Assembly: GCF_017355935.1 (NCBI RefSeq)
Contig: NZ_JAFIQT010000012.1
Coordinates: 1-64,000, forward strand
Reading direction: 5' to 3'
Length of the DNA stretch: 64,000 bases
From: Telluribacter humicola
GTDB taxonomy: Bacteria; Bacteroidota; Bacteroidia; Cytophagales; Spirosomataceae
This document shows positions 43,337-62,331 of this stretch, in pieces. The translations under genes and the position numbers were made by a program. The notes beneath the pieces were generated by a model. It was not told the DNA's origin. It saw only the letters and a list, made by a program, of their open reading frames with translations, and did not search any database. Every line of letters starts with the position of its first letter. The first letter of the stretch is position 1.

Positions 43337-44089
43337 TCAGTCAGGTCTAAACTGCCGAAGCCGATCTTCCCACACGCGCCAGTCCGGCATCAAGCGATCT
43401 TGCAACTCATAAAAGGGCTTTCGATGGTATGGGTTTAGAATATGTGCCAATTCGTGCCAAATAATGTATTCAATGCAGCCCTTGGAGGCACGGATCAAAT
43501 CCGGGTTTAGCCGGATAATGCTTTGAGAACTGCAACTTCCCCAACGTTTTTCCATTCGAACCAGCTTTACTTGCACCCGTTTTTTTTGGTATTCCTCGAT
43601 GGGAAGTTTAGCCAAACAGCGATTGAAAAGGGGGACAATAAAAAGGCGTGCCCGCTGTCGATACCATTCGCCCAACTGTAAGGAAATTAACTTTTTATCG
43701 GTTTTGTCTGGCGTAGTAATCACAATCCTTCCCGAAAGAAATACAACAGATTTAACTGTTTGTTCTTCCACTTTAAGACGGTACTGTCGGCCCAAATAAT
43801 AATGTGTTTCGCCCGATACGTATCGACGTGGAGGTGTGGTGTGGGCGTTGAGCTGGCGAAAACGTTCCTGCTGCCGGATGATCCAGCCTGCCCGGCTCCT
43901 TACCCTTATCTTGATTTGCTCCGTCAAGGCATCCAATGGAGCTTTGACCACTACGTCCCCCGAAGTATCTACGGTAATGGAAAGGGTTTTCCGTGGACTA
44001 CGAGCCACAGCGAAGCGGACGACCACGGAGCCGTAGCGGATTTCTTCTTCACTTGTTTCGACGAGATTTGTTTTTAAGGCGAATGACAT
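43337..44089 (-). CDS. M48/YgjP-type zinc metallopeptidase (DUF45)
   Basis: 250 residues with a C-terminal zinc-peptidase motif WHELAHILNPYHRKPFY (HELAH plus distal His) and the family segment RWGSCSS upstream. Proteins of this family are regularly encoded at the end of type I restriction operons. Its start overlaps the hsdR stop (44089), so it is translated in the same operon. A role in turning over the restriction subunit is speculative. Confidence 0.85.
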   Translation of the reverse strand: MSFALKTNLVETSEEEIRYGSVVVRFAVARSPRKTLSITVDTSGDVVVKAPLDALTEQIKIRVRSRAGWIIRQQERFRQLNAHTTPPRRYVSGETHYYLGRQYRLKVEEQTVKSVVFLSGRIVITTPDKTDKKLISLQLGEWYRQRARLFIVPLFNRCLAKLPIEEYQKKRVQVKLVRMEKRWGSCSSQSIIRLNPDLIRASKGCIEYIIWHELAHILNPYHRKPFYELQDRLMPDWRVWEDRLRQFRPD

Positions 44090-47000: not shown

Positions 47001-47343
47001 GCTCTTCGAAGCTCTTACCGAGGGTAAGCAGGTCGAAGACGTAGCGGTTGGCTTCCAGGTACCCTTGTTGCACGGGGTAGTCGAGTAGGGCGTAGATGGC
47101 GTTGGTCAGGCTTACTTCCGAAAAGGTGTATTCCTCGCCCTTCAGCGAAAAGCTATTCAACTTCCGCAGTTGGTCGCGCAGCACTGGTTCCAGTACCACC
47201 TGGCCCGAATGCCTGGTGACGGGGTCGTTCCCACGCAGCCGCGTGGCTTCCTCGGGGGACAGGTAGGTGTAGCCCATCGCCTGCAAAAGTAGCAGGGCGG
47301 GAACCTGGCTGGCGTCGTTTTCGCGGAAGGATGGGTTGGTCAT
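44089..47343 (-). CDS. hsdR: Type I restriction enzyme, HsdR subunit
   Basis: 1084 residues from the ATG at 47343 (an earlier in-frame ATG at 47385 lacks family similarity). N-terminal nuclease domain with the PD-(D/E)xK core DIVLYVNGIPLVVIECKRP; helicase-translocase with Walker A TQGSGKSYT and DEAH box VLIDEAHRTQ; C-terminal helical part. With HsdM and HsdS it cleaves DNA away from unmethylated sites after ATP-driven translocation. It is separated from hsdS by about 4.9 kb of cargo, and by 180 bp containing a probable antisense RNA. Confidence 0.95.
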   Translation of the reverse strand: MTNPSFRENDASQVPALLLLQAMGYTYLSPEEATRLRGNDPVTRHSGQVVLEPVLRDQLRKLNSFSLKGEEYTFSEVSLTNAIYALLDYPVQQGYLEANRYVFDLLTLGKSFEEQIGPDKKSFSLHYIDWENPERNVLHVTEELRVSRTGHAQSAGRDYSYRPDIVLYVNGIPLVVIECKRPDMDKPLSQAISQHLRNQQNDGIRPLYILSQLLMAICGSEGRYATNQTKEEFWQLWRERENDENALPLQTVKDRSRNDRTFGQALRTNPDRRDQQEPISGTATWTVTPQDELLYALCRPARLLDILYNFIVFDAGEKIVARYQQYFGVRRTLERVRREPDITGRRQGGVIWHTQGSGKSYTMVMLAQLLATDDKILNPKIVLVTDRVELDDQIYQTFKRCGREVVQATTGRRLVEYLEDDSDAVLATLVHKFDAAIKGLQHPITRPNVFVLIDEAHRTQYGTLNVKMQQVFPTACFIGFTGTPLMRREKNTANRFGGIIDTYTVRDAVEDGAVVPLLFEGRAPLFEVNERPIDNYFNRIAEPLNDYQRADLKKKFSRRDTLTQGEQIIYAKAWDISTHFANTWKGTGFKGQLVAPGKKAAVRFKRFMDEIGLITTEVLISPPDDREGNEDAYGQTSSEVQTFWNHMMDRFGSPKQYDETLRQLFKQSDTAPDVIIVVNKLLTGFDNPINVVLYLCAKLHEHTLFQAITRVNRKAPGKDFGYIIDYDGVIAELARVLEIYADHFEDFETADLEGTVSDMRRELARLPQVHSEVWDVFKRVTNRHDLPAYQNILADEAVREIFFERLSAFSRLLKMAFSNHEFVTTIPEPKQLRYRDDLIFFQNLRRAVINIYALEIDYGQYEPQIQKLIDTHVVSDEIVQLTEQVNIFDRERFEEEVARIEGTASRAHAIAARTDRTLTERMGEDPAFYRRFSEMIRETLMLYREERISETELLKSMISIRDQVINRPVDNLPPTVRNRPTATAIYGILRDSLGNKGENGATSVLDAEAAGEWSVRAEEVLLSNLVQDECVVVDWVNRSEIVNQLRFALDDWVWQLDDELSAHLTFDQADELIGKIVQLAKARY

Positions 47344-47441
47344 AGCGGTAATTTCTCTTGTCCTGGAATTATCAAAAATTCGCAAAAATGCATTCAGACA
47401 TCAGGATAACTGTTTGATAAACAGATTTTTAAAAAAAATGC

Positions 47442-47477: not shown

Positions 47478-47575
47478 TCATCTCCCAAAGGGCGAAGGAC
47501 TTGGTCAGTGGTTTATCCACGCAATCGCAATACCGAAAGTTGCGTACCGCACCCCGAGTGCGGTTTTATTTTTTA
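47478..47575 (+). ncRNA. Putative structured small RNA, about 95 nt, in the defence operon
   Basis: A consensus promoter at 47442-47472 and a Rho-independent terminator (CCGCAC-cccga-GTGCGG-TTTTATTTTTT, 47547-47575) bound a short non-coding stretch on the strand opposite to hsdR and the cargo. Three internal helices can be drawn: AAGTC/GACTT (about 47476-47502), GTGG/CCAC (47509-47520) and CGCAA/TTGCG (about 47520-47544). No ORF of any length is present. The 3' end overlaps the last codons of the gene at 47566 in antisense. Its role is unknown: antisense control of hsdR, attenuation, or a functional RNA of the system. Confidence 0.6.
47547..47575 (+). terminator. Rho-independent terminator of the small RNA
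   Basis: Stem CCGCAC (47547-47552) / GTGCGG (47558-47563), loop CCCGA, followed by TTTTATTTTTTA. Confidence 0.85.
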
Positions 47576-48123
47576 AGCCCATCCCGATACTGCTGATGGC
47601 GCTTCCGATGGAAGATCTTCTCATGCTTATCTACACAAAAAGCGGTCACCAAAAGCAGATCAGGGGCAATTGGCTTTAATATTACCAGGTAGTCGCGCCG
47701 CTCATACCAATAATACTGTTTGAGGGTGCCATCCCCTTCAGTGTGTTCGTAATACCAAACCAGCGGATCTTCCGAATGCCTGAGTATAGTCTTGATCCAA
47801 TGCAGTCGGCAGGCCCGAGGGAGATCGAATTCCCGGCGTTGCTTCATTTTACTCTCCCGCGTTATCAAATGCACAAAAGCATCGGGGTAGTTGAGATAGC
47901 CATACACCCTGGAACGGTTCAAATTGACTTTCACGCGCTTTCCTTTGAAATGAAAGGTGGTTTTTTCCCATTCCTGCTTAAAATAATCGTAAAGATCCTT
48001 TACGCATTCCTCCTCCGGAAGGTCCCAAACCCATTCCGCTTCTTCCAAGTCGTCCAGCTCGTCTGGCTCATCGTATAGTCTGCCCATATCAGTCATTTGA
48101 ACTTTGTTTGGGCTGATGGTCAA
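47566..48123 (-). CDS. Hypothetical protein, possible RelE/barnase-type nuclease fold
   Basis: 185 residues, not firmly recognised. An acidic N-terminus (DEPDELDDLEEAEWVWDLPEE) precedes a basic region with RAxRLHWIKTIL, a YYWYERRDYLVILKPI strand pair and LLLVTAFCVDKHEKIFHRKRHQQY. This pattern of strand-TAF/TAY plus terminal basic residues recalls PBECR/RelE-like phage nuclease families. It overlaps the DUF3800 gene by 35 bp (translational coupling). It could be a toxin-like effector or accessory nuclease of the CBASS cargo. Confidence 0.5.
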   Translation of the reverse strand: MTISPNKVQMTDMGRLYDEPDELDDLEEAEWVWDLPEEECVKDLYDYFKQEWEKTTFHFKGKRVKVNLNRSRVYGYLNYPDAFVHLITRESKMKQRREFDLPRACRLHWIKTILRHSEDPLVWYYEHTEGDGTLKQYYWYERRDYLVILKPIAPDLLLVTAFCVDKHEKIFHRKRHQQYRDGLKK

Positions 48124-48805
48124 AAATATTGAATTTCTGCTCCCATGGTTCGGTACCTAAGTGCAGAAAATAGCCCGAAAGCCGCTCTATTTGTTGGATT
48201 AGGGCTACTTTGGCGGTATTAGCCCCCGGTTTCTCATGATTTCCAAGGGCTTTGTAAGCGATGGCTCCAATAAACAGATCCGTCAATTCGAGCAGCGGGC
48301 TATCGTGGGAGCGCAGGTGTTGGAAAGTCTCAAAAGGAGAGTTGCCTTGGTGGTGATTGTGAAAAACTTCCCGAATCTTACGCAACTTCTCCCGGCCCCT
48401 GGTATCCTTTACATCCAGAAAAACCCGGTAGCAACAATCCTGATCATGATTGGGACGTAGCAGGAAATAGACCAGCTTGTAATAGAAGTTATCGTGTGAA
48501 CCGCCGTTGAATTGGTCGTGGTCCAGCTTGTCTTTGTATTTTACCAGAACACACCGAAACCAAAGAGGATTGGCAAAGAAATAGGCAATCAACTCAGCGT
48601 ATAGCGCTTGCCTTGAGGCCGACACCTTCGACCATTTAATCTCAGCGGGCGTGTGATGACGGAGTTTGATGGCTTCCAGATCTTCCCGAATTCGGTCGTA
48701 CTGCTCCTCTTCGACTTTTATATAGCCGATCACCATGACCGGAGAATGGTCGTTTTCCAGGTGGTGACTCTCGTCGCAATAGATTTGGTAGCGCTTGATG
48801 TTCAT
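48089..48805 (-). CDS. DUF3800 protein
   Basis: 238 residues beginning YQIYCDESHHLENDHSP, the CDES signature of DUF3800, a family with a predicted RNase H-like fold. Additional acidic residues (FLDVKDT and LLELTDLFIGAI) fit its catalytic set. The family is frequent in defence islands. Here it is 4 bp downstream of a CD-NTase gene, so it belongs to the same transcription unit. Confidence 0.8.
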   Translation of the reverse strand: MNIKRYQIYCDESHHLENDHSPVMVIGYIKVEEEQYDRIREDLEAIKLRHHTPAEIKWSKVSASRQALYAELIAYFFANPLWFRCVLVKYKDKLDHDQFNGGSHDNFYYKLVYFLLRPNHDQDCCYRVFLDVKDTRGREKLRKIREVFHNHHQGNSPFETFQHLRSHDSPLLELTDLFIGAIAYKALGNHEKPGANTAKVALIQQIERLSGYFLHLGTEPWEQKFNIFDHQPKQSSND

Positions 48806-48808
48806 GGT

Positions 48809-49687
48809 TTAATTTGACTTTTCAAAATAACGTCCCAGGTAACTTCTCCAGATGGTGGAAGCCCGCTCTACACTTCGCATTTTCACAGCACTCTCTGCAT
48901 CCGTAATAAAAAGCTTGATTTGTTGCATGAAGTACGCTCTATCAGACACCGAGAATTTATGCAACAATTCATCCTTTGGAAGAACAGGCATTTTGCATGA
49001 CCACTCTCTAGACAGTTTCCTGCTAATCCCCTTTAAAATATGTAACAGTGCTTGGTCGTCTCTGAGCATGGGCCTGTAGAACGTTCCCGCCATTGTGGTC
49101 AGGGCTACACCCTGGGGAACTCTTCTGTCGTCTGCAATATGATGGCACCAAGCCTTTAAATATCGAACAAGTCGAACCAATTGCTCTTTATCGTTTCCCC
49201 CTTTCTCGTTGAACCAGTCTTCAAATTCCCTCGGATCGCTCTTCACCCATCCATTCTTGGTGGCTAAGAATGATTTACCCCTACCACGCGAACTTTCCAG
49301 ATAATAGATGGGAAGGTCAATATGAAATTTGCCTGCGTAGGGGATTCTGATACATTTTTTCTTGTGTTCAGGCTGAGTCCGGCTTTGATGCCCATTAACG
49401 AAAATGGTATGCATGGCGGCCATTAGACTCCTTGGTAGTATATCTGGCTTGGGATAGAAATAAACCCCTATATCAATATCGCTCTCCTCCCCGTATTTGC
49501 GAATCAGAGTGCCTAGCTGCTTTGAACCTTGTACCTTGAAGCGCTTGAAAGGATACCTCTTCTCCGCGCATAGCTTCTTAATGTGCTGGCGAACGGATTT
49601 ATTGGCACTTCCAAGTTTCTTCTTCACCGTTGGTGAAATGTTCAGTGCTTCGTTGAACTCCAAAAACAGCTTATGACAATCGGCCAT
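48809..49687 (-). CDS. CBASS CD-NTase (cGAS/DncV-like), second copy
   Basis: 292 residues from ATG at 49687; the longer frame to 49762 would overlap the upstream gene and lacks similarity. Nucleotidyltransferase core with QGSKQLGT (G54, S55), D70 and D72 in SDIDIGVYF, and D124 in FHIDLPIYY; helical C-lobe with VPQGVALTTM. All catalytic acids are present, so it should be able to make a cyclic oligonucleotide. It is clearly paralogous to the CD-NTase at 50122 but ends soon after the helical domain (GRYFEKSN) with no flexible tail. Start overlaps the E2-like gene by 17 bp. Confidence 0.85.
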   Translation of the reverse strand: MADCHKLFLEFNEALNISPTVKKKLGSANKSVRQHIKKLCAEKRYPFKRFKVQGSKQLGTLIRKYGEESDIDIGVYFYPKPDILPRSLMAAMHTIFVNGHQSRTQPEHKKKCIRIPYAGKFHIDLPIYYLESSRGRGKSFLATKNGWVKSDPREFEDWFNEKGGNDKEQLVRLVRYLKAWCHHIADDRRVPQGVALTTMAGTFYRPMLRDDQALLHILKGISRKLSREWSCKMPVLPKDELLHKFSVSDRAYFMQQIKLFITDAESAVKMRSVERASTIWRSYLGRYFEKSN

Positions 49688-50132
49688 CTGATTCTGATTT
49701 TTCCTGGTCTTCGTGGGAGGCACTTTTTCCAAGCCACACACCATATAACTTGTACAGTTCATAAAACACCAGCCATTCCGCAGTCCAGGGAAGCATCGTG
49801 TCCTTCATGTGAAAATGGTCTTTCCAGGGAGTCTCCTTTGGATAGTAAAGGCATAGATTTCCTTCTTTGTAAATATGAATCAGAGCCGAGGGGATAATTT
49901 CGGGCTCCTCAATATACATGGCAGGCTTACCCCAAACGGAATATTCAAGCCTAAGCCGATATATGGGAGAGTCATCGGTTGGCTTCATTTGGCCAAAGCA
50001 TACCAACTTCGTGGTTCGTAAATTGACCTCATTACACTTCATACAGGGAAACCGACTTTCTATCATACCCTTTTCCACGGTCAGCTTACGCCAGCCGGAG
50101 ACCCTTATTCCCTTTAATGTTTTAGTTCCCAT
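49671..50132 (-). CDS. CBASS E2-like conjugating protein (short type II)
   Basis: 153 residues with the pattern HIYKEGNLCLYYPKETPW and LPWTAEWLVFYELYKLYGVWLG, typical of E2-only proteins of short type II CBASS. C94 in NLCLYY is the predicted active-site cysteine. In such systems an E2-like protein joins the CD-NTase C-terminus to a target, priming its activity; no E1 or JAB peptidase is encoded here. Overlaps the upstream CD-NTase gene by 11 bp and the downstream one by 17 bp. The N-terminus carries an additional cysteine pair (C30, C33). Confidence 0.8.
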   Translation of the reverse strand: MGTKTLKGIRVSGWRKLTVEKGMIESRFPCMKCNEVNLRTTKLVCFGQMKPTDDSPIYRLRLEYSVWGKPAMYIEEPEIIPSALIHIYKEGNLCLYYPKETPWKDHFHMKDTMLPWTAEWLVFYELYKLYGVWLGKSASHEDQEKSESDGRLS

Positions 50133-51144
50133 AAAATTTATGATCGAGATTCTTGGTTGAACCGATTGAGGAACTGGTAATTACACCCGTTTTGGATGTA
50201 TATGCCGCACCCGATGTGATAAGGGCGGCTTTCTCCCACAGTGCTTTTTCCCGCGCTTCAACATCGGCATCTTCTCCTACGGGAAAGCGATTGCCTAAAT
50301 GCTTTCGCCACAGTTTACTGGCTTTCAATTGATTGGGTTCATCTAACGCTCTATTTGCATCGTCAATAAAGGAGTCCAGCTCAGCCAGGAATGCACTGCT
50401 CTGAATGTCGTTGAAGTCGGCCAGAAGATCGTCAAATGGCGTGACGGGCATCAGGCATTCAAAGCGCTGCAGGCGATCCCGAATGGCTCTCAACGTCTCA
50501 TACATAGCCTTGTCGTTTCGAATATTCAGAACACGGTGGCTTGTGCAAAGCACCGTCAACGCAACCCCCTTCGGCATTTTCAATGATTTACTCTTGTAAT
50601 CTGCCCATGCTTTCAAGTACCTGATCAGGCTGACCACTTGCTGCTCACCTTTCTTTTCTTGCTGGTACCACTCCCAAAATTTCTTAGGATCACTTTTGTC
50701 CCAACCTACATTTTTTACGGCCAGGTAAGGCGACTCGTCGCCTAGGGAAGAGTCACGGTAATATACGGGCAGGTCGATATGGTAATCTCCCTTGTAGATC
50801 ACCCGGATGCATTTGTCACGGTGTTTGGGCGGAGTGTCTGTGGCGTCTTTAACCGCATCCAGCACCCACTGCTGCATGGTCGTGGCATTTTCCGTAGGTT
50901 TAGGAAAGAAATAGACTCCATCATCCATGTCGCACGTGTCCTCTTCTGTCCTGATGACGGTTCGCATTTTGCTCGAACCCTGAATGTAAAACCTTGGCTT
51001 ATATTCAGGATGGTGGGCCGCGAAGTGCTTTCTGATCAGTTTACGCCCCTCTTCACGGGAGGTCCGCATTCGGCCTTCCTTCGTTGAGGTGAGTTTCAGT
51101 TCATCATCGTTGAACGAGGTAAATAGTGTGTGGCAGTTGGCCAT
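50122..51144 (-). CDS. CBASS CD-NTase (cGAS/DncV-like), first copy
   Basis: 340 residues. Catalytic core IQGSSKM (G56, S57), D72 and D74 in CDMDDGVYFF and D124 in YHIDLPVYY, all intact. The C-terminus continues past the helical domain with a Ser/Thr-rich flexible tail ending HKFYGN; such tails are what E2-type proteins conjugate through, normally at a terminal Gly or Ala residue. It lies 13 bp after the patatin gene. Its product is probably a cyclic dinucleotide such as 3'3'-cGAMP, as known for DncV-type enzymes partnered with patatin effectors; this is inference. Confidence 0.9.
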   Translation of the reverse strand: MANCHTLFTSFNDDELKLTSTKEGRMRTSREEGRKLIRKHFAAHHPEYKPRFYIQGSSKMRTVIRTEEDTCDMDDGVYFFPKPTENATTMQQWVLDAVKDATDTPPKHRDKCIRVIYKGDYHIDLPVYYRDSSLGDESPYLAVKNVGWDKSDPKKFWEWYQQEKKGEQQVVSLIRYLKAWADYKSKSLKMPKGVALTVLCTSHRVLNIRNDKAMYETLRAIRDRLQRFECLMPVTPFDDLLADFNDIQSSAFLAELDSFIDDANRALDEPNQLKASKLWRKHLGNRFPVGEDADVEAREKALWEKAALITSGAAYTSKTGVITSSSIGSTKNLDHKFYGN

Positions 51145-53569: not shown

Positions 53570-53652
53570 TATTTTCCGATGGGGTTAACCTCGTTCTCAT
53601 CATTCTTTCGGTACTCCAAATCTTGGCTTAGATTCAATCGGCCAGAATAAAT

Positions 53653-55224
53653 TCAGAAGCCCAACTCACTCAGATATTGACTCATGCGTTTTTTAGCCTC
53701 GGCCAATTCACCTTCCAACCGGGCAATCTGCTGTTGGGTGGCGGCGATGTCGATCGGTTCCTCCTCCTCGAAGGTGTCTACGTAGCGGGGAATATTGAGG
53801 TTGTAGTCGTTCTCGCGAATTTCGTCGCGGGTAGCGCGGTAGGCAAACTTGTCGACCACGACGCCGGTGGTACCCTGAGGTTCGTTGCGGAAAGAGGCGA
53901 CCAGCTCGACAATTTGGTCGAGGTGTTTCTTTTTGAGCATACTCTGGTTGCGGCCGTCGTCGTACGACTGGCTGGCGTCCACAAACAGGACATCGGTGTT
54001 GGTAGCATCGGTACGCGCGCGGTTGAACAGCAGGATGGCCGTGGGAATGCCCGTGCCAAAGAACAGATTAGCGGGCAGACCGATTACGGCTTCCAGCAAA
54101 TTCTCCTCGATCAGTTTCCGCCGGATCAACCCTTCCGAACTTCCCCGGAACAGCACACCGTGCGGCACGATCACGCCCACCCGGCCGCTACCCTCGTAGG
54201 TAGTTTCTATCATGTGAGAGATAAAGGCGAAATCACCCTTGGACTTAGGCGGTACGCCCCGGTGGAAGCGGGCGAAGCGGTCGGTAGCGGCTATGTCGGC
54301 ACCCCATTTGTCGAGCGAGAAAGGCGGATTAGCCACTACGATGTCAAACTTCATTAGCCTGTCATTCTCCAAAAGCAACGGGTTATTGAGGGTGTCGCCC
54401 CAGCGGATTACCGCGTCATCAAACCCATGCAGGAACATATTCATGCGGGCCAGTGCAAAAGTACTGCGGTTAATTTCCTGGCCATAGAGGGCAAAATTGC
54501 GCGAACCCACTTGCTGCCCTACCTTAATTAGCAGCGAGCCCGAGCCGCAAGTAGGGTCACTGATGCGACTACCGGGCCGTGGATTCATAAGACGCGCCAG
54601 TAGTAAAGAAACCGACGAAGGTGTGTAGAACTCCCCTGCCTTTTTGCCCGCGTTCGAGGCAAAGCGGTCGATCAGAAACTCATACACATCACCGATAACG
54701 TCCTGGCTTTCGAGGTGCGAGGGCGTGAGGTCAATGCTCTTGAAATCCTCGATCAAGTTCTTTATACGGCGGTTACGGTCGCGAGTAGAGCCAAGCTGCT
54801 TCTCGGAATTGAAGCTGATGTCGCCGAAGACGCCGTCGAGCTTCAGGCGATTGGCTTCTTCCAGGTGGTCGAGGGCCATGTCCACCAGTTCACCAATATT
54901 AGTGGCGTTACGCTGCTCGTAGAGGTAATCGTAGCGGCATTCCTCCGGGAGGCGGAACCGTTCGAACTGCTCAAGCGCGCGTTGAGTACGTGGACAATTA
55001 TCGGGCGTCTCATCGTATTTGTCCAGGTAAAAGTTTTCTCGGTCCTTCCACAGGTCAGAGAGGTACTTCAAAAATAGAAAGGTGAGAATATAGTCCTTGT
55101 ACTGCGCCGGGTCGATAACGCCCCGAAAAGTATCACAGGCCCGCCATACGGCTGCATTAATGGCGTCGGCCGAGATCAGGCGGTCTCCCTTGGCAGCAGT
55201 GGAGATAGGGTCGTCGAAAAGCAT
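53653..55224 (-). CDS. hsdM: Type I modification methyltransferase subunit HsdM
   Basis: 523 residues. N-terminal HsdM helical domain, then an adenine-N6 methyltransferase with AdoMet motif DPTCGSGSLLIK and catalytic NPPF in VVANPPFSLDKWG. With HsdS it methylates the target to protect host DNA. The start overlaps the half-HsdS gene by 49 bp. Confidence 0.95.
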   Translation of the reverse strand: MLFDDPISTAAKGDRLISADAINAAVWRACDTFRGVIDPAQYKDYILTFLFLKYLSDLWKDRENFYLDKYDETPDNCPRTQRALEQFERFRLPEECRYDYLYEQRNATNIGELVDMALDHLEEANRLKLDGVFGDISFNSEKQLGSTRDRNRRIKNLIEDFKSIDLTPSHLESQDVIGDVYEFLIDRFASNAGKKAGEFYTPSSVSLLLARLMNPRPGSRISDPTCGSGSLLIKVGQQVGSRNFALYGQEINRSTFALARMNMFLHGFDDAVIRWGDTLNNPLLLENDRLMKFDIVVANPPFSLDKWGADIAATDRFARFHRGVPPKSKGDFAFISHMIETTYEGSGRVGVIVPHGVLFRGSSEGLIRRKLIEENLLEAVIGLPANLFFGTGIPTAILLFNRARTDATNTDVLFVDASQSYDDGRNQSMLKKKHLDQIVELVASFRNEPQGTTGVVVDKFAYRATRDEIRENDYNLNIPRYVDTFEEEEPIDIAATQQQIARLEGELAEAKKRMSQYLSELGF

Positions 55225-55772
55225 TCAGTAATCAGGTTTTGGTGGTGATCCGTGATCTGTTGGTGCAGGCCCTGGATCGTTAGAAATGTATTGTACAGGT
55301 TTATTAAGCGCCTTTGAGTATCCATTGAAGGGATCGGAATGGGCAGATCGAGTAAATCTTTCTTATTCAAAGTGGGTACCGTTGCGGATGAGCTAACGCG
55401 ACGATCAAGCAGTGTCTGTGTTCCGGGCTGATTCAGGTAACAGGCCAGAAATTCAGGTAAAACTACATCGGGCTCGTTTACCCGAAGAATATAAAAGGCT
55501 GCCGACGCAACCGCTCTGGGATATTTTTCACGATAGAAAATAGCCGAATGCCGACTTCCCTTTCCCATCAATAAAATGTCATCCGGCCTAATCCTTGCGC
55601 GTTCCATTATATCACTAACGGGACTAAGCCGGGTTGGCGGTTCCATCGACAATAACCTCCCATACTCATCAAAATCGCCCGGATTAAAGAAGATGATAGG
55701 CTCACCTGTCTTGGCCGGGCGTAAAGCCATGCCAATTTGAATGTCCACAATATGATCCAAGGGTATAAGCAT
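55176..55772 (-). CDS. HsdS-like half specificity subunit (single TRD)
   Basis: 198 residues from ATG at 55772; the frame upstream to 55859 has no family similarity. It contains one target-recognition-type domain (KKDLLDLPIPIPSMDTQRRLINLYNTF) and a short trailing helix, i.e. half of an HsdS. It is the first gene of the operon, overlapping hsdM by 49 bp. It may modify specificity by replacing or supplementing HsdS, or be a remnant of a domain-shuffling locus. Confidence 0.75.
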   Translation of the reverse strand: MLIPLDHIVDIQIGMALRPAKTGEPIIFFNPGDFDEYGRLLSMEPPTRLSPVSDIMERARIRPDDILLMGKGSRHSAIFYREKYPRAVASAAFYILRVNEPDVVLPEFLACYLNQPGTQTLLDRRVSSSATVPTLNKKDLLDLPIPIPSMDTQRRLINLYNTFLTIQGLHQQITDHHQNLITECFSTTLSPLLPRETA

Positions 55773-55861
55773 GAACAAATGTAAGAAAAAATAAATTATA
55801 TTATCATGGAACCGAAATAAAAAATGGAAGGTTCCTATTTGAACTAAATTTACACACACTT

Positions 55862-56908
55862 ATGGCGACAGTTCTAATCAAGCTATTTCAAGTGCTTCAA
55901 GGCGATTGTATTTCGATTGAGTGCTTTGATGAATCGAGAGATCAAGCCGCTTGTATATTTATAGATGCAGGTTTCGTTAGGACTTACTTCAGGACATTAA
56001 GACCTGAGGTATTGAGCATTAATGATTCGCAAAAACCAATCGATTTATTTGTGGTGACGCACACCGACAGCGATCATATTTCTGGAATCTTACCATTTCT
56101 TAAAGAGTTTGGTCACCTGCCAGTAAAGCAATTTTGGTTCAACTGGTCACCCAACCCAGTACGCTTGAGTGAATCAAACGGAGAGATCAGCATCAAGGAA
56201 GGAATCATACTACGAGACTTTCTGATTGGAGAGGGAAAAGCCTCTGGAAATAATATTTTGGCTGGCCAGGCCTACGAAGTCAATGGGGTAGCACTGACCA
56301 TCCTGTCACCAGACGAGGAGCAATTCGAGGGCTTCACAAAGAAATGGCACAAGGAAGAGACTAGACTGTCTGAAAAGTCAGGTAGTGATATAGGCACAGG
56401 CCAAGGTCGTAACGACCACGAGAGTATTAATGATCTCAGTAATCAAAAATTTGCCGAGGATAAGTCGCTAAGTAATCGTAGTAGCATGGCCTTTCTCTTA
56501 GAATTTAATGGGTTCACGGGTTTGTTCACAGGAGACAGTGTCCCATCGGTCATTATCGCTTCTTTGGAAAAATTAGGGTACAGCCAAGAAAAAAAATTGA
56601 AGCTAGATTTCATGAAAGTCGCACATCACGGATCGAAGGCAAATACCAGCGACGAGTTGTTGCAGATGCTTGACTGTGCTCATTATGGAATCAGCAGTAA
56701 TTCCCAGAACACCCACAATTTCCCTCATAAGGAAACTCTGGCCAGGATTGTCAAGGCCAGAGAAGGTAGTACCGTCAATTTTCATTTCAATTATGACGAC
56801 CCAGTTCTAAGAAATATATTCACAAGCCAAGAGCTAGCCGACCATAATATCACCTGTCACTACCCTGCCCAGCGAGAAAATCAAATCCAATACACATGGA
56901 ATCAGTAA
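55862..56908 (+). CDS. MBL-fold hydrolase, ComEC/Rec2-type, paired with the trypsin-PIN protein
   Basis: 348 residues. Metallo-beta-lactamase motif VTHTDSDHISG (H67, D69, D71, H72), with Asp in place of the second His as in one branch of ComEC-type hydrolases, plus GLFTGDS and KVAHHGSKANTS further on. No membrane segments, unlike ComEC. Probably a nuclease or phosphodiesterase. It overlaps the next gene by 13 bp, so the two form a unit transcribed divergently from the restriction operon. MBL-trypsin pairs occur in Avs1 and other conflict systems. Confidence 0.8.
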   Translation: MATVLIKLFQVLQGDCISIECFDESRDQAACIFIDAGFVRTYFRTLRPEVLSINDSQKPIDLFVVTHTDSDHISGILPFLKEFGHLPVKQFWFNWSPNPVRLSESNGEISIKEGIILRDFLIGEGKASGNNILAGQAYEVNGVALTILSPDEEQFEGFTKKWHKEETRLSEKSGSDIGTGQGRNDHESINDLSNQKFAEDKSLSNRSSMAFLLEFNGFTGLFTGDSVPSVIIASLEKLGYSQEKKLKLDFMKVAHHGSKANTSDELLQMLDCAHYGISSNSQNTHNFPHKETLARIVKAREGSTVNFHFNYDDPVLRNIFTSQELADHNITCHYPAQRENQIQYTWNQ

Positions 56909-59900
56909 GTTCATCGAACATCGACAGCCTTTGTGCCCGGCTGAGTAACAATGGCCATCCGGTTGGAAGCTGCGTTTTGGTCAAACCAAGCGAGACAAGC
57001 GAACTGGTTTACCTTTTTACCGCTACCCACTGCTTAAAAGACATAAAATCAATCGCTGACCTGGCAGTTGAAATGTACACTCCTGAGCTTAAAGGCTTTA
57101 CCAAATATAAATTAAATGATGGGATAAAGAGAATTGACGACCCTGTCGCCGATTTATCCATTCTGGAAATATCGGCGCTGATCACAGACCGAAAGATTCC
57201 CTTTATCACTATGAGTCTCGAGTATGCCCAAGGTGAACCGTATTTTTTTCGGGGTTTCCCGCAAGCTGTCAACGCGTTGGAACCGGAAGAAGATGACGGA
57301 ATTCTGCAAACCCCGTCTGGGCGGACGATTAAAGGTAGTAGTAACCGTACCAAATCCAGCCCAATATGTTTGCCTGAGGACCTAGTAAAAGGTTTTTCTG
57401 GTAGTGGCTGCTTTGTAGTTCGCGGAGGGGATAAGGTGCTCATTGGTGTAGTGAGCAAATACAATGACGGGTTAAATCGCTTTGAAGGAGTTAATTTGGT
57501 AGGGGCGAATGACCTGTTAAATTCCCATTACCTTGAAGAGTTACAGTTTTTCATCAGGAAAGAAATTCTGCCAGAAACATCAAATCCGGAGTTGATTGAA
57601 AGCCTGAACAATCAATTGAAAGCTGCCGAGGAACAATACGAGCGGCTGATGCCTTTCTCAGCGCTTACTGCGGTGGATAAACTTATACCTACAATCCAAG
57701 ACAGTTCGATACGTGCGCTGGATAAAAAGAAGCTTAATGCTAGAAGTTGCTACCTCAGAGCAAACTGCCTACGGGAAGATACCAAAGTTCCGGATCGGGA
57801 GTATCATAACTTGTTTATTCATGCTTATAAATTGGATCCCCAGCCGTTGAAACACAAAGAGAGGGCAGCCAGAGCGTATTTTGATTTGGAGCAACCTGTT
57901 GAGTCGTCTTTGATTATAGACGAAATCCTAGAAGAAGATCCACTCAATGCCTACGCGCTGGCAATAAAATGCCAAATTCATCCCGAAACGTTACCTGATG
58001 CATCTGTGGCTCGAAATCCTGTTTTCAAGCGACTTAAAGTCCACTATCTGTTAAAAATCAGCGGAAAGGTTTCTACAGACTCACTTGCTGAAATTTTTCA
58101 GGAGGAGAAAGACGCCTTAAAACTGCCTGATAAAATCTCTCGTGACGAACTTTCCTACTGGTGGTACTTGGCTCAGTACATTATGCAGGACTGCCTCGCA
58201 AAAATAAAGGTGTATAATTTCCATTCACCAGTTGACTTGAAAAGTGATTTTGCTTTGGACTATGCCAATAAGCTTTTAAGGTTTATTGGTAAACGTGTGA
58301 ATGATACAGAAATACAGGATAGCGTGACATTTAGATTGGCACGCTTTGATTACTGGTTTACGCATTATTTGCAAACGAGAACCCGTCAATCTGTTTTCAA
58401 AATGTACGAGTTGTTCAACGGAACTCAGCAAGAGGATCAGCTTTTTTCACCCTTTGAAGAAATAGTATTGCCAGTTTCAGAGGATTTATCCAGCAGGATT
58501 TCATGTATGTGCATATGCCTTTTAGAAATTAAAGAATTTGAAAAAATTATCAAATTATTGGAAGAAACTAAGACTGAGAAGCATGGACTTTTGTGGCAGT
58601 TTGGTGGTTTTGCCTTTTCCCAAATTAATAAACATGAAGAAGCTGTAGAGTACTTTACTGAGTACCTAAAAGAGATAAGCCTTATAGATGAAACAGATAC
58701 CCTTAACCTGTTTAACATTATTGATTATTTGTATGAACTAAAATGGCCCGTTGACAAAATATGGGAATTCATTTCTACCGGGAAGGATTTTGAAAACGAA
58801 AATTTAAAAGTATTACTCATGGCGTCATGTTTTCGCCTTGAGGAAAATAAACATAATGAAGTTAAAGCATTATGTGAGAAACTGGATTATACGGATTTTA
58901 CAGAACGTCGTTTTAAATATATGTTTGTGGCCTGTCTGATGGCCATAGGTAATCTTAAACAGGCCGAAGAAATACTGGAACCACTGATTGATTTTGACAA
59001 GCCTTCGCCCGAGTTGGAATGGTACATTATGTGCCTACAAGGGATGAGAACAAAGACGGCTCGCCTGCTGGAAATATTGAAGCACTGGCGTCTTAATTTC
59101 GAGCCTGGCCATGCCTACATTGACTTGGAGCTTTATATTTTAAGTTATGTCCGAGATTATCAAGCGATTGAAGATGCTGCCAGAACGGGCTTAAAAGCTC
59201 ATCCTGATAATCCTGAATACTGGTTCTCATTGTTCAATGCGATGGTTCGTGCAGCCAAGTCAGGAAAAGAAGAGGAAATCAAGGGCCACTTGACAAAGCA
59301 GGCTAAAATTGTTGCCACAAAAATAGAATGGCAGCGGGCTTTTAAACTGGCTGGACTATGTGCGATAGTTGGTCTTCGCGAGCTGAGCAAGGACATTCTC
59401 TACGACACCCTTCAAGCCAATGCCGACAACTCATTGGTAAAGACAGCCTACTTGACCACCGAAGTGATGGAAAAGGAATCGGAACCTTATGAACATCCTG
59501 AGGTGGCTACGGAGGACTGTGTCATACGGCTCAAAGACGATGCTGGCAAGGATTCTGTGCTTTCATTGAAGTCCTCTTTGATTGAAAGCAACCCGCTCGT
59601 GATTCTTGCCATTGGAAAGCGGGTTGGCGAATCATTTGTCCATATTAAGTCCATGGGAAATGCGAAGACTTACACCATTACCATGATATTCGATAAGTAC
59701 GTTGGTCAAAAAGTACTTCTGTATAACGAGTTGGAAAGAAACCCAGCAACTCAGCCTGAGGTAGAATCGATGAATATAATTGAGGAAGGTGGGTTCGAGG
59801 GGATGATAGAGAAGTTTAAGAATACCTTCGGTGCGGCAGGTTCAATGCGTAAGGATTCAATAAATAAGTTCTTTGAGAAGTTCAAAAACAGGGAAATAGG

Positions 59901-60924
59901 GTTTACAGAACTGGCTATGGCAGTTCAAAATGATTATCATCAAACATGGCAATCTATCACGTCTGATTACAACGATGGGTTTCCGGTTGTTCCTTTAAAT
60001 GTTAAACGACTAGCATTCGATGGGGATAAGGAAATAGTGCTTGACTATTCGACATTATTTACTTTGATTAAACTTGAAGAGCTTACAGGGCTTACGCATA
60101 AGGGTAAACCGTATTTTATATCGCAGAGAATTGTCGATTCATTAAGGGAACAGCTCCAAGAGATGAAATTGACCCGCCCTGGCACTCATTCGATGAGTAT
60201 AACCCTAGATTCGGTAACACCTATACTAATTCCTAACGATTTTTACATAAAGAAAGAGAACGAGTTGCAGAAAATTATTGATTGGATTGGTAAGAACACG
60301 AGAACAGAGGCGGTTCCTGAGATGTTCGAGTATTGTATTGATTCCCCTGGATTTGATGTCAATACACAAATGGTAGTAGAAACGGCTATGTTGGCTACTA
60401 AGCCGAACAGAATTTTATTATCAGATGAGCTATTTCATCAAAATCATACCTTGAATTCGCTTGATATAAATGTTGTATCAATAGAAAATTATTTGCTAGA
60501 TCATTTTCAAGCTGAATATAAAGATGTTTTACTTCCAGAATTGTTGAAACTGAATTACAGAGGGTTAACTGTTGACAGTAGTGTTTTGACCCGCCTCCTG
60601 GAAGAATCAAATACTGCATTGACAAGGTCATTGAACCAACACACACTTTTTCAAAAAAGCCTTTATGGAATCTGCCCCCTTTTCAATGACAATCCTGAGA
60701 ATATATCATCCGTAGTAAGATTTCTGAAAAGTGTTTACTCAGAGTCTTCTGACTTATGGTATAAGCAAATGATATCAAGAAAGGTACTCGGTTTCTTGTT
60801 CGATGGTGCTAATCCAACCGTTCTACCAAGGCTTATAAAGCTAATTGAAAGAGATTTCAGGTTACTTGGTGACCATATGGATCATGTAGTTGAGGACGTG
60901 CAGTTTGTTGTGGGTAATCCTTGA
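56896..60924 (+). CDS. Giant trypsin-TPR-GreAB-C-PIN domain protein
   Basis: 1342 residues. Residues 1-235: chymotrypsin-like protease with a full triad, H45 in FTATHC, D86 in VADLSIL and S168 in KGFSGSG. About 255-850: TPR-like helical repeats. About 876-940: a GreA/GreB C-terminal-type domain (IRLKDDAGKDSVLSL ... LAIGKRVGESFVHI). About 1045-1340: PIN-like nuclease with D1050 (IVLDYSTLF) and S1176-D1177-E1178 (LLSDEL). A protease, sensor repeats and a toxic nuclease in one chain suggest an abortive-infection device triggered by proteolysis, with the MBL protein as partner. No nucleotide-binding STAND domain is present. Family assignments are by motif and order; the GreAB-C call is the weakest. 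Confidence 0.75.
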   Translation: MESVSSSNIDSLCARLSNNGHPVGSCVLVKPSETSELVYLFTATHCLKDIKSIADLAVEMYTPELKGFTKYKLNDGIKRIDDPVADLSILEISALITDRKIPFITMSLEYAQGEPYFFRGFPQAVNALEPEEDDGILQTPSGRTIKGSSNRTKSSPICLPEDLVKGFSGSGCFVVRGGDKVLIGVVSKYNDGLNRFEGVNLVGANDLLNSHYLEELQFFIRKEILPETSNPELIESLNNQLKAAEEQYERLMPFSALTAVDKLIPTIQDSSIRALDKKKLNARSCYLRANCLREDTKVPDREYHNLFIHAYKLDPQPLKHKERAARAYFDLEQPVESSLIIDEILEEDPLNAYALAIKCQIHPETLPDASVARNPVFKRLKVHYLLKISGKVSTDSLAEIFQEEKDALKLPDKISRDELSYWWYLAQYIMQDCLAKIKVYNFHSPVDLKSDFALDYANKLLRFIGKRVNDTEIQDSVTFRLARFDYWFTHYLQTRTRQSVFKMYELFNGTQQEDQLFSPFEEIVLPVSEDLSSRISCMCICLLEIKEFEKIIKLLEETKTEKHGLLWQFGGFAFSQINKHEEAVEYFTEYLKEISLIDETDTLNLFNIIDYLYELKWPVDKIWEFISTGKDFENENLKVLLMASCFRLEENKHNEVKALCEKLDYTDFTERRFKYMFVACLMAIGNLKQAEEILEPLIDFDKPSPELEWYIMCLQGMRTKTARLLEILKHWRLNFEPGHAYIDLELYILSYVRDYQAIEDAARTGLKAHPDNPEYWFSLFNAMVRAAKSGKEEEIKGHLTKQAKIVATKIEWQRAFKLAGLCAIVGLRELSKDILYDTLQANADNSLVKTAYLTTEVMEKESEPYEHPEVATEDCVIRLKDDAGKDSVLSLKSSLIESNPLVILAIGKRVGESFVHIKSMGNAKTYTITMIFDKYVGQKVLLYNELERNPATQPEVESMNIIEEGGFEGMIEKFKNTFGAAGSMRKDSINKFFEKFKNREIGFTELAMAVQNDYHQTWQSITSDYNDGFPVVPLNVKRLAFDGDKEIVLDYSTLFTLIKLEELTGLTHKGKPYFISQRIVDSLREQLQEMKLTRPGTHSMSITLDSVTPILIPNDFYIKKENELQKIIDWIGKNTRTEAVPEMFEYCIDSPGFDVNTQMVVETAMLATKPNRILLSDELFHQNHTLNSLDINVVSIENYLLDHFQAEYKDVLLPELLKLNYRGLTVDSSVLTRLLEESNTALTRSLNQHTLFQKSLYGICPLFNDNPENISSVVRFLKSVYSESSDLWYKQMISRKVLGFLFDGANPTVLPRLIKLIERDFRLLGDHMDHVVEDVQFVVGNP

Positions 60925-61003
60925 ATTTTGGCGGTTGTGAATTAAGGACTACAAATGTAACTATGCTACTTCGATCATTAATAACGAGACCATAAAGGCA
61001 TAC

Positions 61004-61120
61004 CTTTCTGAACCCTGCCCACCAGCAGGGTTTCTCTTTGCTTCTACCCCGAAATGTAGGTTCAGAAAGTAAGTCCAGTACTAAAAGAAAGCTTAGCTTT
61101 ATGATACCAACTTTCTGAAC
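61004..61120. repeat. Three CTTTCTGAAC sites (+,-,+), res-like
   Basis: CTTTCTGAAC at 61004-61013, its reverse complement GTTCAGAAAG at 61060-61069, and CTTTCTGAAC again at 61111-61120. The last two extend to an 11-bp perfect inverted repeat (61060-61070 / 61110-61120) with a 39-nt spacer, ending 2 bp before the recombinase remnant start at 61123. Same architecture as at 43025-43096. Confidence 0.7.
61011..61045 (+). terminator. Rho-independent terminator after the trypsin-PIN gene
   Basis: Perfect 8-bp stem AACCCTGC (61011-61018) / GCAGGGTT (61025-61032), loop CCACCA, then TCTCTTTGCTTCT. Lies 87 bp beyond the stop at 60924. Confidence 0.8.
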
Positions 61121-61122
61121 AT

Positions 61123-61365
61123 ATGAACAAAGTCTTTTGCTACGCCCGGGTATTCACGGCAGCGGCCGCCCGTCGCCGACCAAAACACCAACACCCAGAT
61201 AGAAGCCTTACAGAATTACGGCTGCGACCGGATCTTTCAGGAGAAGATATTCGGCCTATCAGTCCAGCGCCCGCCCTGAACGAAATGCTGTCCCTACTCC
61301 GCGAAGGTGATACCGTAGCGGTACACCCTATGTTCCTATTAAACACAATCCCCAAGCAGCTTTAA
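61123..61365 (+). pseudogene. Serine recombinase (resolvase) remnant, indels
   Basis: The frame starts MNKVFCYARVFTA (resolvase start; the Ser nucleophile of the expected RVSTA is replaced by Phe). A 16-bp GC-rich insertion at about 61161-61176 breaks it; the next segment DQNTNTQIEALQNYGCDRIF is in another frame; a one-base loss at about 61275 restores the original frame, which continues ALNEMLSLLREGDTVAV and then diverges. Only the N-terminal catalytic part is left, and the key serine is missing, so this is non-functional. Confidence 0.8.
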
Positions 61366-61412
61366 AGTAAATCTTAAAAAAATAATATTGCCTATTACTT
61401 ATTTTAATCTTA

Positions 61413-61690
61413 GAATTCCGGCGGATGGCGCTGCCATACATCGTAACCAGGAGGTATAAACGTTTCTGGTACGCAAGAAGGTGCTTGTTCACTTGCAGTA
61501 TTTACCTGCCTATAGACCTGAACTTAATCCTGTGGAGCTATTATGGAGCCAGTTAAGGTGGAATATAAAAAATAAGCGGGGCTGCCCGTGCAGTGTACTT
61601 GACTATTCTAGACTTAACTGATGCTGTCTTGGAACAGGTGAAGGAGCTAGGAAAGAATCTCATCACATCCTTCTTCCTTAAAAAAGGAAT
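61413..61690 (+). pseudogene. IS630-type transposase C-terminal remnant
   Basis: HLQYLPAYRPELNPVELLWS is the hallmark IS630/Tc1 C-terminal DDE segment (final E in NPVELLW). A preceding ADGAAIHRNQEV (second D expected nearby) is interrupted by a stop, and the end is frameshifted. No ends recognised. Confidence 0.8.
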
Positions 61691-61789
61691 CGGTTCCTTT
61701 ATGAATTAATTCACTCATCTATAAATATTTCTAAAGTTAGATTGCCACAAATTAGTTTAGCGACCAAGGTGTACCAGTTATTGCTCTTC

Positions 61790-62002
61790 TCATAATTGTT
61801 TTAAAAACTCGTCAGGGAGCAGCTCCCGCAGTGATACCTGGCATAGGGTGGCTATAGCTGGGAACAACTCCAGCGGAACTGGAGCTTTACCACTTTCCCA
61901 TTTATGATATGTACTTTGTGATACCCCAAGTTGCTCGGCCATAAGAGATTGTGAAATACGAGTTCGAGCACGGTAATTTCGGAGAAGATCTTCAACAGGC
62001 AT
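61790..62002 (-). CDS. XRE-family helix-turn-helix regulator
   Basis: 70 residues: a single Cro/C1-type HTH with ISQSLMAEQLGVSQSTYHKWESGK (helices 2-3) and a short C-terminal tail. Transcribed divergently from the glycosyltransferase gene, which it may control. No signal domain, so it acts as a simple repressor or activator. Confidence 0.85.
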   Translation of the reverse strand: MPVEDLLRNYRARTRISQSLMAEQLGVSQSTYHKWESGKAPVPLELFPAIATLCQVSLRELLPDEFLKQL

Positions 62003-62331
62003 GGATAAAGTGAGTGTATAGAAGTAAGGTTCTTTTTACCCAAATTAAAGCCTCATAGCTTTCTACGCAACTTACCCAATTATAAATACGTAAAAATACC
62101 TGGTATTGTAACTATTGAGCAGATTAGCTATAATTAGTTCGTTGTCAGCTATTTATATCAAATATACTTCTAGAAAGAAACTATTAAAAATTTATTTAAC
62201 GGTAGAGTCTACTTCATACTTCGATAATTCTAAAATTATTACTAAGATAATAAATAATATTACTTAAGTAATAGGACTTAACAGCTGCTCTTAGGTTATT
62301 TGACTTAACGATCACGCTAGTTAATTACCTC
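62003..62331. other. AT-rich divergent promoter region
   Basis: About 330 bp between the XRE regulator (leftward) and the glycosyltransferase (rightward). Very AT-rich. No gene seen; I could not define a clear promoter box. Confidence 0.4.

What the first reader, a model, noticed from the sequence alone, without database searches (positions are those of the whole stretch)
55862..60924. MBL hydrolase + trypsin-TPR-GreAB-C-PIN protein, a possible undescribed defence system
A 13-bp overlapping gene pair, divergent from the R-M/CBASS operon. The 1342-residue protein joins a full catalytic-triad protease, a long TPR array, a Gre-type C-terminal domain and a PIN-like nuclease. MBL-trypsin pairs accompany STAND NTPases in Avs1, but no STAND is present here. 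One reading: TPRs sense a phage product, the protease cleaves the chain (or MBL), releasing PIN or MBL nuclease. The Gre-like domain could dock at RNA polymerase, which would be a novel trigger or target.
Basis: partly seen in the sequence, partly recalled or inferred. Interest (0 to 1): 0.86.

Follow-up and report, generated by a model that had tools for sequence, protein, structure and literature searches.

The report
Protease-triggered nuclease on a Gre-PIN protein
Two overlapping bacterial genes look like a suicide-type virus defence in which a large sensor protein carrying a protease switches on a caged DNA-cutting enzyme; both halves were known separately, and here they are joined in one conserved system.

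Summary
Window 55862-56908 encodes an MBL-fold protein and overlaps by 13 bp a 1342-residue trypsin-TPR-GreC-PIN gene (56896-60924). Neither half is undescribed. The large protein is the TPR-GreA/B-C-PIN conflict protein of Kaur et al. 2021, with trypsin already a listed head (PF20698). The MBL-trypsin half is the nuclease-protease pair of Tuck et al. 2025: a caged DNase opened when its partner protease cuts two gating loops.

I found their obligate union in neither text. Nine of nine trypsin-headed Gre-PIN loci carry the MBL gene overlapping upstream; none of ten testable Gre-PIN loci with other heads does. The nine MBLs form one clade. The window's MBL models as a ComEC-type nuclease with just two disordered stretches, 98-110 and 173-184, holding I109 and, less surely aligned, I177, the counterparts of published cut sites.

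Best reading: TPR/Gre/PIN senses infection, trypsin cuts both loops, the freed MBL destroys DNA. The trigger, including RNA polymerase, is untested. New variant of a known kind. Related MBL-trypsin pairs also sit on short Argonautes.

The parts
55862..56908 (+). MBL-fold pro-nuclease gene (348 aa), ComEC-type
   Evidence: PADLOC LmuA hydrolase model 3.3e-86, RTasMBL 6.3e-56, Avs1a 1.1e-40; model pLDDT 81.8, pTM 0.85; best PDB match ComEC domain 9ic4, Z 24.7, 249 aligned, rmsd 2.9
56060..56077 (+). MBL metal-binding motif HTDSDH, residues 67-72
   Evidence: Sequence; H67, D69, D71, H72 invariant in the 20-row alignment; in the Gre-PIN set G802 and G735 differ inside the motif
56153..56191 (+). 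Predicted gating loop 1 (residues 98-110), predicted cut after I109 (56186-56188)
   Evidence: pLDDT under 50 at 98-110; aligned with I116 of Plesiomonas HamM and I133 of Vibrio Avs1a
56378..56413 (+). Predicted gating loop 2 (residues 173-184), predicted cut after I177 (56390-56392), register unsure
   Evidence: pLDDT under 50 at 173-184; loop-2 alignment
56896..56908 (+). 13-bp overlap of the two genes
   Evidence: overlaps of 8-23 bp at the other eight loci
56896..60924 (+). Trypsin-TPR-GreC-PIN gene (1342 aa)
56896..57570 (+). Trypsin-like protease domain (residues 1-225), triad H45/D86/S168
   Evidence: Trypsin_2 19.2 bits, sub-threshold; PADLOC LmuA protease model 2.8e-21; triad in 8 of 8
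57571..59475 (+). TPR region (about residues 226-860)
   Evidence: TPR_19 over cut-off at 648-706, weaker TPR_14 at 752-779; the limits are approximate
59476..59760 (+). GreA/B-C-like domain (about residues 861-955)
   Evidence: hhalign probability 94.6, shuffles at most 12.7; GreA_GreB hit in L084
60037..60438 (+). PIN domain; acidic residues D1050, D1081, E1162, D1177
   Evidence: PF20698; the four positions are acidic in 8 of 8 trypsin-headed rows; 1050, 1162 and 1177 acidic in 16, 18 and 17 of 19 rows with other heads included

Best explanation
A two-gene abortive-infection-type defence. The MBL gene encodes a caged ComEC-type DNase whose active site is covered by two disordered loops. The large protein is sensor and switch: on infection its TPR/GreC/PIN part recognises or assembles on a phage-made or phage-altered target and brings trypsin domains together. 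The protease then cuts the MBL after a small aliphatic residue in each loop (I109 and I177 predicted), and the opened MBL degrades DNA, ending the infection and probably the cell. The PIN domain keeps its acidic residues, so it may be an active RNase that works beside the DNase, or part of sensing. Shown here: architecture, intact catalytic residues, obligate pairing, one MBL clade, two disordered loops with aligned cut sites. Inferred: cleavage, DNase activity, trigger, oligomerisation, cell death.
For: Nine of nine trypsin-headed loci have the MBL overlapping upstream; 0 of 10 testable loci with other heads have it (Fisher p 1e-5 ignoring kinship). The nine MBLs are one clade, 100/99. The eight full large proteins are one side of a branch in their last 500 residues, 93/90, and the unrooted MBL, trypsin and C-terminal trees of the eight have the same five splits (one split is weak, 65/66 in trypsin and 68/68 in MBL). 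The MBL model has exactly two segments under pLDDT 50, in the regions of the published gates. Best structural match is the ComEC nuclease domain. The mechanism was shown by experiment for relatives in Hachiman and AVAST. PIN acidic residues and triad intact. Purifying selection. Defence genes beside the pair at four of the nine loci.
Against: No experiment on any member. The alignment behind the model is of MBLs at 21-34% identity, so low confidence in the loops may come partly from lack of aligned relatives there. Loop 2 cannot be aligned securely: the aligned column is I or V in only 2 of 9 Gre-PIN MBLs, and C11 and G841 have no matching second site under the rule. Trypsin_2 is below its Pfam cut-off in the window protein. 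At five of the nine loci no defence neighbour was shown: one neighbour each tested without a hit at G735 and G841, none scanned at C11, G195 and G802.
Confidence: 0.68

Rival explanations
1. The PIN domain is the main effector: engaged with an RNA polymerase complex through GreC it cleaves transcripts, and the trypsin-MBL pair is a back-up suicide arm that fires only if this first line fails (Kaur et al.'s two-tier model, extended here to the MBL).
For: Kaur et al. predicted this order (passages). PIN acidic positions are kept whatever the head (16-18 of 19 rows), so PIN is not lost when the effector head changes.
Against: No evidence that GreC binds RNA polymerase; the Gre match is remote and covers only the C-terminal domain of Gre factors.
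Confidence: 0.17
2. The trypsin cuts the large chain itself (or host or phage proteins), and the MBL is a separate hydrolase, not its substrate.
For: Autocleavage is common among proteases (established knowledge); substrate not tested here.
Against: The MBL accompanies the trypsin head in 9 of 9 loci and is absent with other heads in 10 of 10 testable. Two disordered loops with aligned cut sites. Homologous pairs work by cutting the MBL.
Confidence: 0.07
3. A degraded Avs, Lamassu or Hachiman system that has lost its sensor gene and is no longer a defence.
For: MBL is close to the Lamassu hydrolase model (3.3e-86), and the right flank holds mobile-element remnants by reading.
Against: Complete Gre-PIN chassis present; same pair at eight other loci; its own MBL clade; purifying selection.
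Confidence: 0.03

Closest known systems
TPR-GreA/B-C-PIN conflict system (Kaur et al. 2021, PMC8195603, passages read; Pfam PF20698)
   Same: Same constant C-terminus (TPR, GreA/B-C, PIN); trypsin is among the 13 replacement heads.
   Different: Described as mostly standalone genes with few conserved neighbours; no MBL or lactamase term occurs in its main text. Here an MBL gene is an overlapping partner of the trypsin-headed form in 9 of 9 loci.
Nuclease-protease pairs of Hachiman, AVAST, Lamassu and DRT (Tuck et al. 2025, PMC12799240; main text and figure legends read, supplement not available)
   Same: ComEC-type MBL gene upstream of a gene whose protein begins with a trypsin domain; two disordered gating insertions; aliphatic cut positions.
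   Different: The protease sits on a TPR-GreC-PIN protein. The main text names neither PIN nor GreA/B.
Lamassu with hydrolase and protease effectors (PADLOC LmuA models)
   Same: Nearest PADLOC models for both proteins: MBL 3.3e-86, trypsin part 2.8e-21.
   Different: No SMC-type LmuB or LmuC among the flanking ORFs scanned.
Avs1 (AVAST type 1)
   Same: MBL plus trypsin; MBL matches the Avs1a models.
   Different: Below NCBIfam's Avs1a cut-off (178.5 vs 420); no STAND NTPase family in the large protein.
canu (caspase-nuclease) systems
   Same: Protease-opened MBL nuclease.
   Different: Caspase, not trypsin; the caspase-linked MBLs of my panel fall on the other side of a 97/96 branch, mixed with two unassigned ones.

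Membership tests
TPR-GreA/B-C-PIN conflict protein | PIN domain of family PF20698 | tested here: met
   41.1 bits, cut-off 27.8, residues 1048-1180
TPR-GreA/B-C-PIN conflict protein | TPR repeats before the Gre domain | tested here: met
   TPR_19 27.3 bits, cut-off 25, at 648-706
TPR-GreA/B-C-PIN conflict protein | GreA/B-C domain between TPR and PIN | tested here: met
   Not by Pfam in the window; by profile-profile comparison, probability 94.6 against at most 12.7 in 100 shuffles; direct hit in relative L084. Remote.
TPR-GreA/B-C-PIN conflict protein | One exchangeable N-terminal effector head | tested here: met
   Trypsin in nine loci; other heads in eleven full-length relatives, e.g. NNH5 in two
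Nuclease-protease pair (Tuck et al.) | ComEC-type MBL gene next to a protein with an N-terminal trypsin domain | tested here: met
Nuclease-protease pair (Tuck et al.) | Two disordered insertions at the active site | tested here: met
   Only segments under pLDDT 50 are 98-110 and 173-184; that they cover the active site was not measured
Nuclease-protease pair (Tuck et al.) | Conserved cut residues in both insertions | tested here: inconclusive
   Site 1 is I or V in 8 of 9; site 2 column I or V in 2 of 9 with unsure register
Nuclease-protease pair (Tuck et al.) | Protease-dependent DNase activity and phage defence | not testable with these tools
   Needs the bench
Avs1 (AVAST type 1) | STAND NTPase in the protease protein; Avs1a over NCBIfam cut-off | tested here: not met
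   No NTPase family in the large protein; Avs1a 178.5 vs 420
Lamassu | LmuB SMC ATPase (and LmuC) beside LmuA | tested here: not met
   No SMC-type ATPase among the flanking ORFs scanned; next long ORF downstream is at 62332, a glycosyltransferase by reading, not scanned
Hachiman | HamB helicase and HamA domain | tested here: not met
   No HamA family in the large protein; the only helicase among the flanking ORFs scanned is HsdR at 44089-47385

The most novel reading that the evidence does not exclude
The system guards host RNA polymerase. The GreC domain docks at the secondary channel of polymerase that a phage has taken over or stalled, PIN cuts the extruded transcript, and clustering of the large protein there switches on the trypsin, which uncages the DNase: a transcription-surveillance trigger wired to a proteolytic nuclease cascade.
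Probability: 0.15. Interest if true: 0.88.

Novelty: new variant of a known kind. Interest (0 to 1): 0.52.

Why it matters
It gives the predicted but, as far as I could read, untested TPR-GreA/B-C-PIN family a concrete, assayable output (cleavage of a named substrate at two named residues) and adds a chassis to those named for the nuclease-protease module. The trypsin-MBL read-out would make the RNA-polymerase-surveillance idea directly testable. The short-Argonaute loci found on the way suggest that the module has spread beyond the systems named in the main text of Tuck et al.

Tried and rejected
Looked for and not found. Pair in viral contigs: the window MBL alone matched nothing; the 9-row MBL alignment gave 6 loci, four with an MBL at E 2e-39 or better by my profile (L144-L147), a trypsin-profile hit beside it in L145 and L146 only, and no Gre-PIN hit in any; the Gre-PIN alignment gave 73 pattern matches, none a relative. 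Phage records: no match to the large protein. Plasmid records: 3 match the large protein, only Runella's over most of its length; 65 match the MBL. PF20698 in the phylum of a Paenibacillus genome: 0 of 299. In the window's own phylum it is rare: 7 of 291 (order), 10 of 395 (phylum), 8 of 222 (family) genomes (the samples overlap).

They served only as rows for the structure job.

AlphaFold of residues 861-1342 without an alignment: pLDDT 38.6, uninformative. I gave it no relatives, because the structure tool names the sources it accepts and loci of the genome search, the fetch from genomes and annotated records are not among them.

Covariation of the two cut residues. The site-1 residue recurs before S/G/A/T in loop 2 in 24 of 33 rows against 11.6 in shuffles (1 in 20,000 as high). 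Of 12 offsets tried, offset 0 is best, but offsets 3 (16 vs 9.3) and 7 (15 vs 10.4) also exceed. Ham_Vibrio counts as a match at a place that is probably not the site. Nine Gre-PIN rows alone: 7 against 4.2, p 0.036 (all). Seven of 40 panel rows were left out: one near-copy (Lmu_L108) and six caspase-linked or unassigned rows. The stricter aligned-column test gave 3 of 9 (p 0.035) and 6 of 30 (p 0.11). On independent pairs of the tree it lacks power: 5 pairs each, I 2.7 same way vs 1.0 other way, V 3.3 vs 0.1, no p under 0.05 possible. A lead, not a result.

A first GreA set failed (my pattern kept 1 of 33 candidates); it was replaced by 29 domains cut at the search coordinates. The first shuffle control read the wrong field and was redone.

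Rows dropped before the 9-against-10 count: other-headed L091 (160 bases upstream, contig end), L083 (C-terminal part only, 341 bases upstream), L095, L096 and L097 (short or doubtful PIN matches). Upstream lengths. L114 and L126 are the same Runella plasmid and count once.
Full report
OBSERVATION. Two plus-strand ORFs, 55862-56908 (348 aa) and 56896-60924 (1342 aa), overlap by 13 bp. They point away from an operon with an HsdS half, HsdM, a second HsdS-like and a patatin-like ORF (both by reading), two CD-NTases and an E2-like protein. Pfam finds Lactamase_B in the first. In the second it finds PIN-TPR-GreABC (41.1 bits, cut-off 27.8), TPR_19 (27.3, cut-off 25) and a sub-threshold Trypsin_2 (19.2, cut-off 27.6). 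The triad H45, D86, S168 is in 8 of 8 full-length proteins. The four PIN positions 1050, 1081, 1162 and 1177 are acidic in 8 of 8; with other heads included, 1050, 1162 and 1177 are acidic in 16, 18 and 17 of 19.

GRE DOMAIN. Pfam does not call it in the window protein. I took 29 GreA/B C-terminal domains from genomes of the order and compared profiles. With all 19 Gre-PIN proteins the match has probability 94.6 and score 40.8; the best of 100 column shuffles were 12.7 and 19.9. Of windows slid along the trypsin-headed alignment only two passed probability 10, both here: 852-959 (82.1) and 906-1009 (17.2). Trypsin-headed rows alone give 74.9. Relative L084 has a direct GreA_GreB hit, 28.1 bits at cut-off 26.9; L086 a sub-threshold one. 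The domain is probable, and remote from true Gre factors.

RELATIVES. The same genome has a second copy on another contig (MBL 40%, large protein 28% identical). PF20698 was found in 7 of 291 genomes of the order, 10 of 395 of the phylum and 8 of 222 of the family (overlapping samples). All nine matches within the family are trypsin-headed and all nine have the MBL overlapping upstream: window, C11, G195, Runella slithyformis plasmid pRUNSL03 (NC_015694.1, also met as G803), G821, G802, G794, G735, and G841, where the large gene is broken and a transposase-like ORF (by reading) lies in it. Of eleven full-length Gre-PIN proteins with other heads, ten have at least 2 kb of upstream DNA; none has an MBL or trypsin hit in its locus. 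In the same 291 order genomes none of the five with other-headed Gre-PIN has any MBL-profile hit.

TREES. Forty MBLs: the nine Gre-PIN ones form one clade (100/99), grouped with Avs2- and Avs4-linked MBLs at 92/91; 13 of 37 inner branches are open. In the last 500 residues of the large protein the eight full trypsin-headed ones are one side of a branch, 93/90; two long rows make parts of that tree unsure. The unrooted MBL, trypsin and C-terminal trees of these eight have the same five splits, one of them weak (65/66 in trypsin, 68/68 in MBL). This fits one acquisition and co-inheritance.

MBL AS A CAGED NUCLEASE. A model from 20 sequences (mean pLDDT 81.8, pTM 0.85) has exactly two stretches below 50: residues 98-110 and 173-184. 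The best PDB match is the ComEC domain 9ic4 (Foldseek 9.9e-13; Z 24.7, rmsd 2.9 over 249); a phosphorylcholine esterase follows at Z 21.7-21.9. Tuck et al. (main text and figure legends; supplement not available) mapped cuts in HamM after I118 and I218, and in EpiAvs1a found defence reduced or lost on changing I134 and I234 and a product from a cut next to I134. In my alignment the Plesiomonas HamM and Vibrio Avs1a residues in those places are I116/I215 and I133/I234 (numbered by hand). The window's counterparts are I109 and, with less sure register, I177. Site 1 is I or V in eight of nine Gre-PIN MBLs and A in G794, which has A in the aligned loop-2 column too; that column is I or V in only two of nine. 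Across chassis the site-1 residue tends to recur in loop 2 (24 of 33, shuffles 11.6), but kinship cannot be removed with so few lineages.

SELECTION AND MOSAICISM. Window against G794: dN/dS 0.07-0.19 by domain, so both genes are maintained. dS runs from 0.21 in Gre to 2.7 in the middle and late TPR parts, which points to recombination that swaps the TPR region. Values above about 2 are near saturation, and the pair G195-G821 shows no such step. A swapped repeat region is what a sensor in an arms race might show; that is inference.

CONTEXT. Beside the pair: type I R-M and CBASS in the window; two CD-NTases and a 4TM effector at G821; a type I specificity subunit and a TIR-like ThsB at G794; PDC-M48B-like MBLs and weak E1-E2 hits at Runella, with an annotated MvaI/BcnI R-M further off. 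The one neighbour tested at each of G735 and G841 had no hit. Neighbours at C11, G195 and G802 were not scanned.

MECHANISM. Best reading: TPR/GreC/PIN senses, trypsin domains cluster and cut both MBL loops, DNase destroys DNA. Cleavage and DNase steps are inferred from relatives tested by experiment. The trigger is unknown. RNA polymerase docking is Kaur et al.'s proposal (passages) and my most novel case. The PIN domain may be an RNase arm; nothing here decides it.

NOVELTY. Chassis with trypsin head: published 2021. MBL-trypsin switch: published 2025. Their union: no MBL or lactamase term in the 2021 main text, no PIN or GreA/B in the 2025 main text. Text searches for the chassis or the combination (open-licence PMC only; one search listed 20 of 23) showed, as far as listings and passages of PMC13092281 and PMC10907252 tell, no other description. 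The 2025 supplement, which has further loci, could not be read. Hence: new variant of a known kind.

SIDE FINDING. In two genomes of the same family an MBL close to the window's lies before a trypsin-APAZ protein and a short Argonaute. In L098 PADLOC gives Aga 8.5e-64, LmuA protease 1.2e-31 and pAgo_I 3.2e-178. L099 has the same gene order and a very similar 473-aa protein by reading; its trypsin had only a sub-threshold Pfam hit. Text searches for Argonaute with APAZ and trypsin, or with protease and metallo-beta-lactamase, found no description (listings and two passages).

Noticed in passing
L098:6021-10086 (-) and L099:6516-10530 (-): MBL gene + trypsin-APAZ protein + short Argonaute (in L098 PADLOC pAgo_I 3.2e-178, Aga 8.5e-64): the nuclease-protease module on a short-pAgo chassis. 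The two MBLs group at 100/99. No description found.
   Followed up: partly
window 48809-51144 (-): Two CD-NTase genes in one CBASS operon with an E2-like gene between them (49671-50132); both keep GS and D-x-D motifs by reading. L127 also has two CD-NTases and a 4TM effector directly upstream of the pair.
   Followed up: partly
window 56896-60924 against L129:6238-10266: Mosaic gene: dS 0.21 in Gre, 0.41 in PIN, 2.7 in the middle and late TPR parts, suggesting exchange of the TPR region.
   Followed up: partly
window 60925-62331: No long ORF; by reading it holds a serine-recombinase N-terminal fragment near 61123 and an IS630-like transposase fragment. Serine recombinase genes lie near the pair in L126, L127 and L129, but tblastn of these three found no similar stretch here.
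   Followed up: partly
L129:2962-5178: The HsdM/HsdS-half block next to the pair is 85% identical to window 53621-55836, so R-M block and pair are shared as one stretch by two genomes.
   Followed up: no
L100, L101, L116: MBL-trypsin pairs on Avs4-like (L100, L116) and Avs2-like (L101, where the MBL gene follows the protease gene) proteins rather than Avs1.
   Followed up: no
window 47566-48805 (-): Two genes matching PADLOC candidate system PDC-M04A/B (one has DUF3800) between HsdR and the CBASS genes.
   Followed up: no
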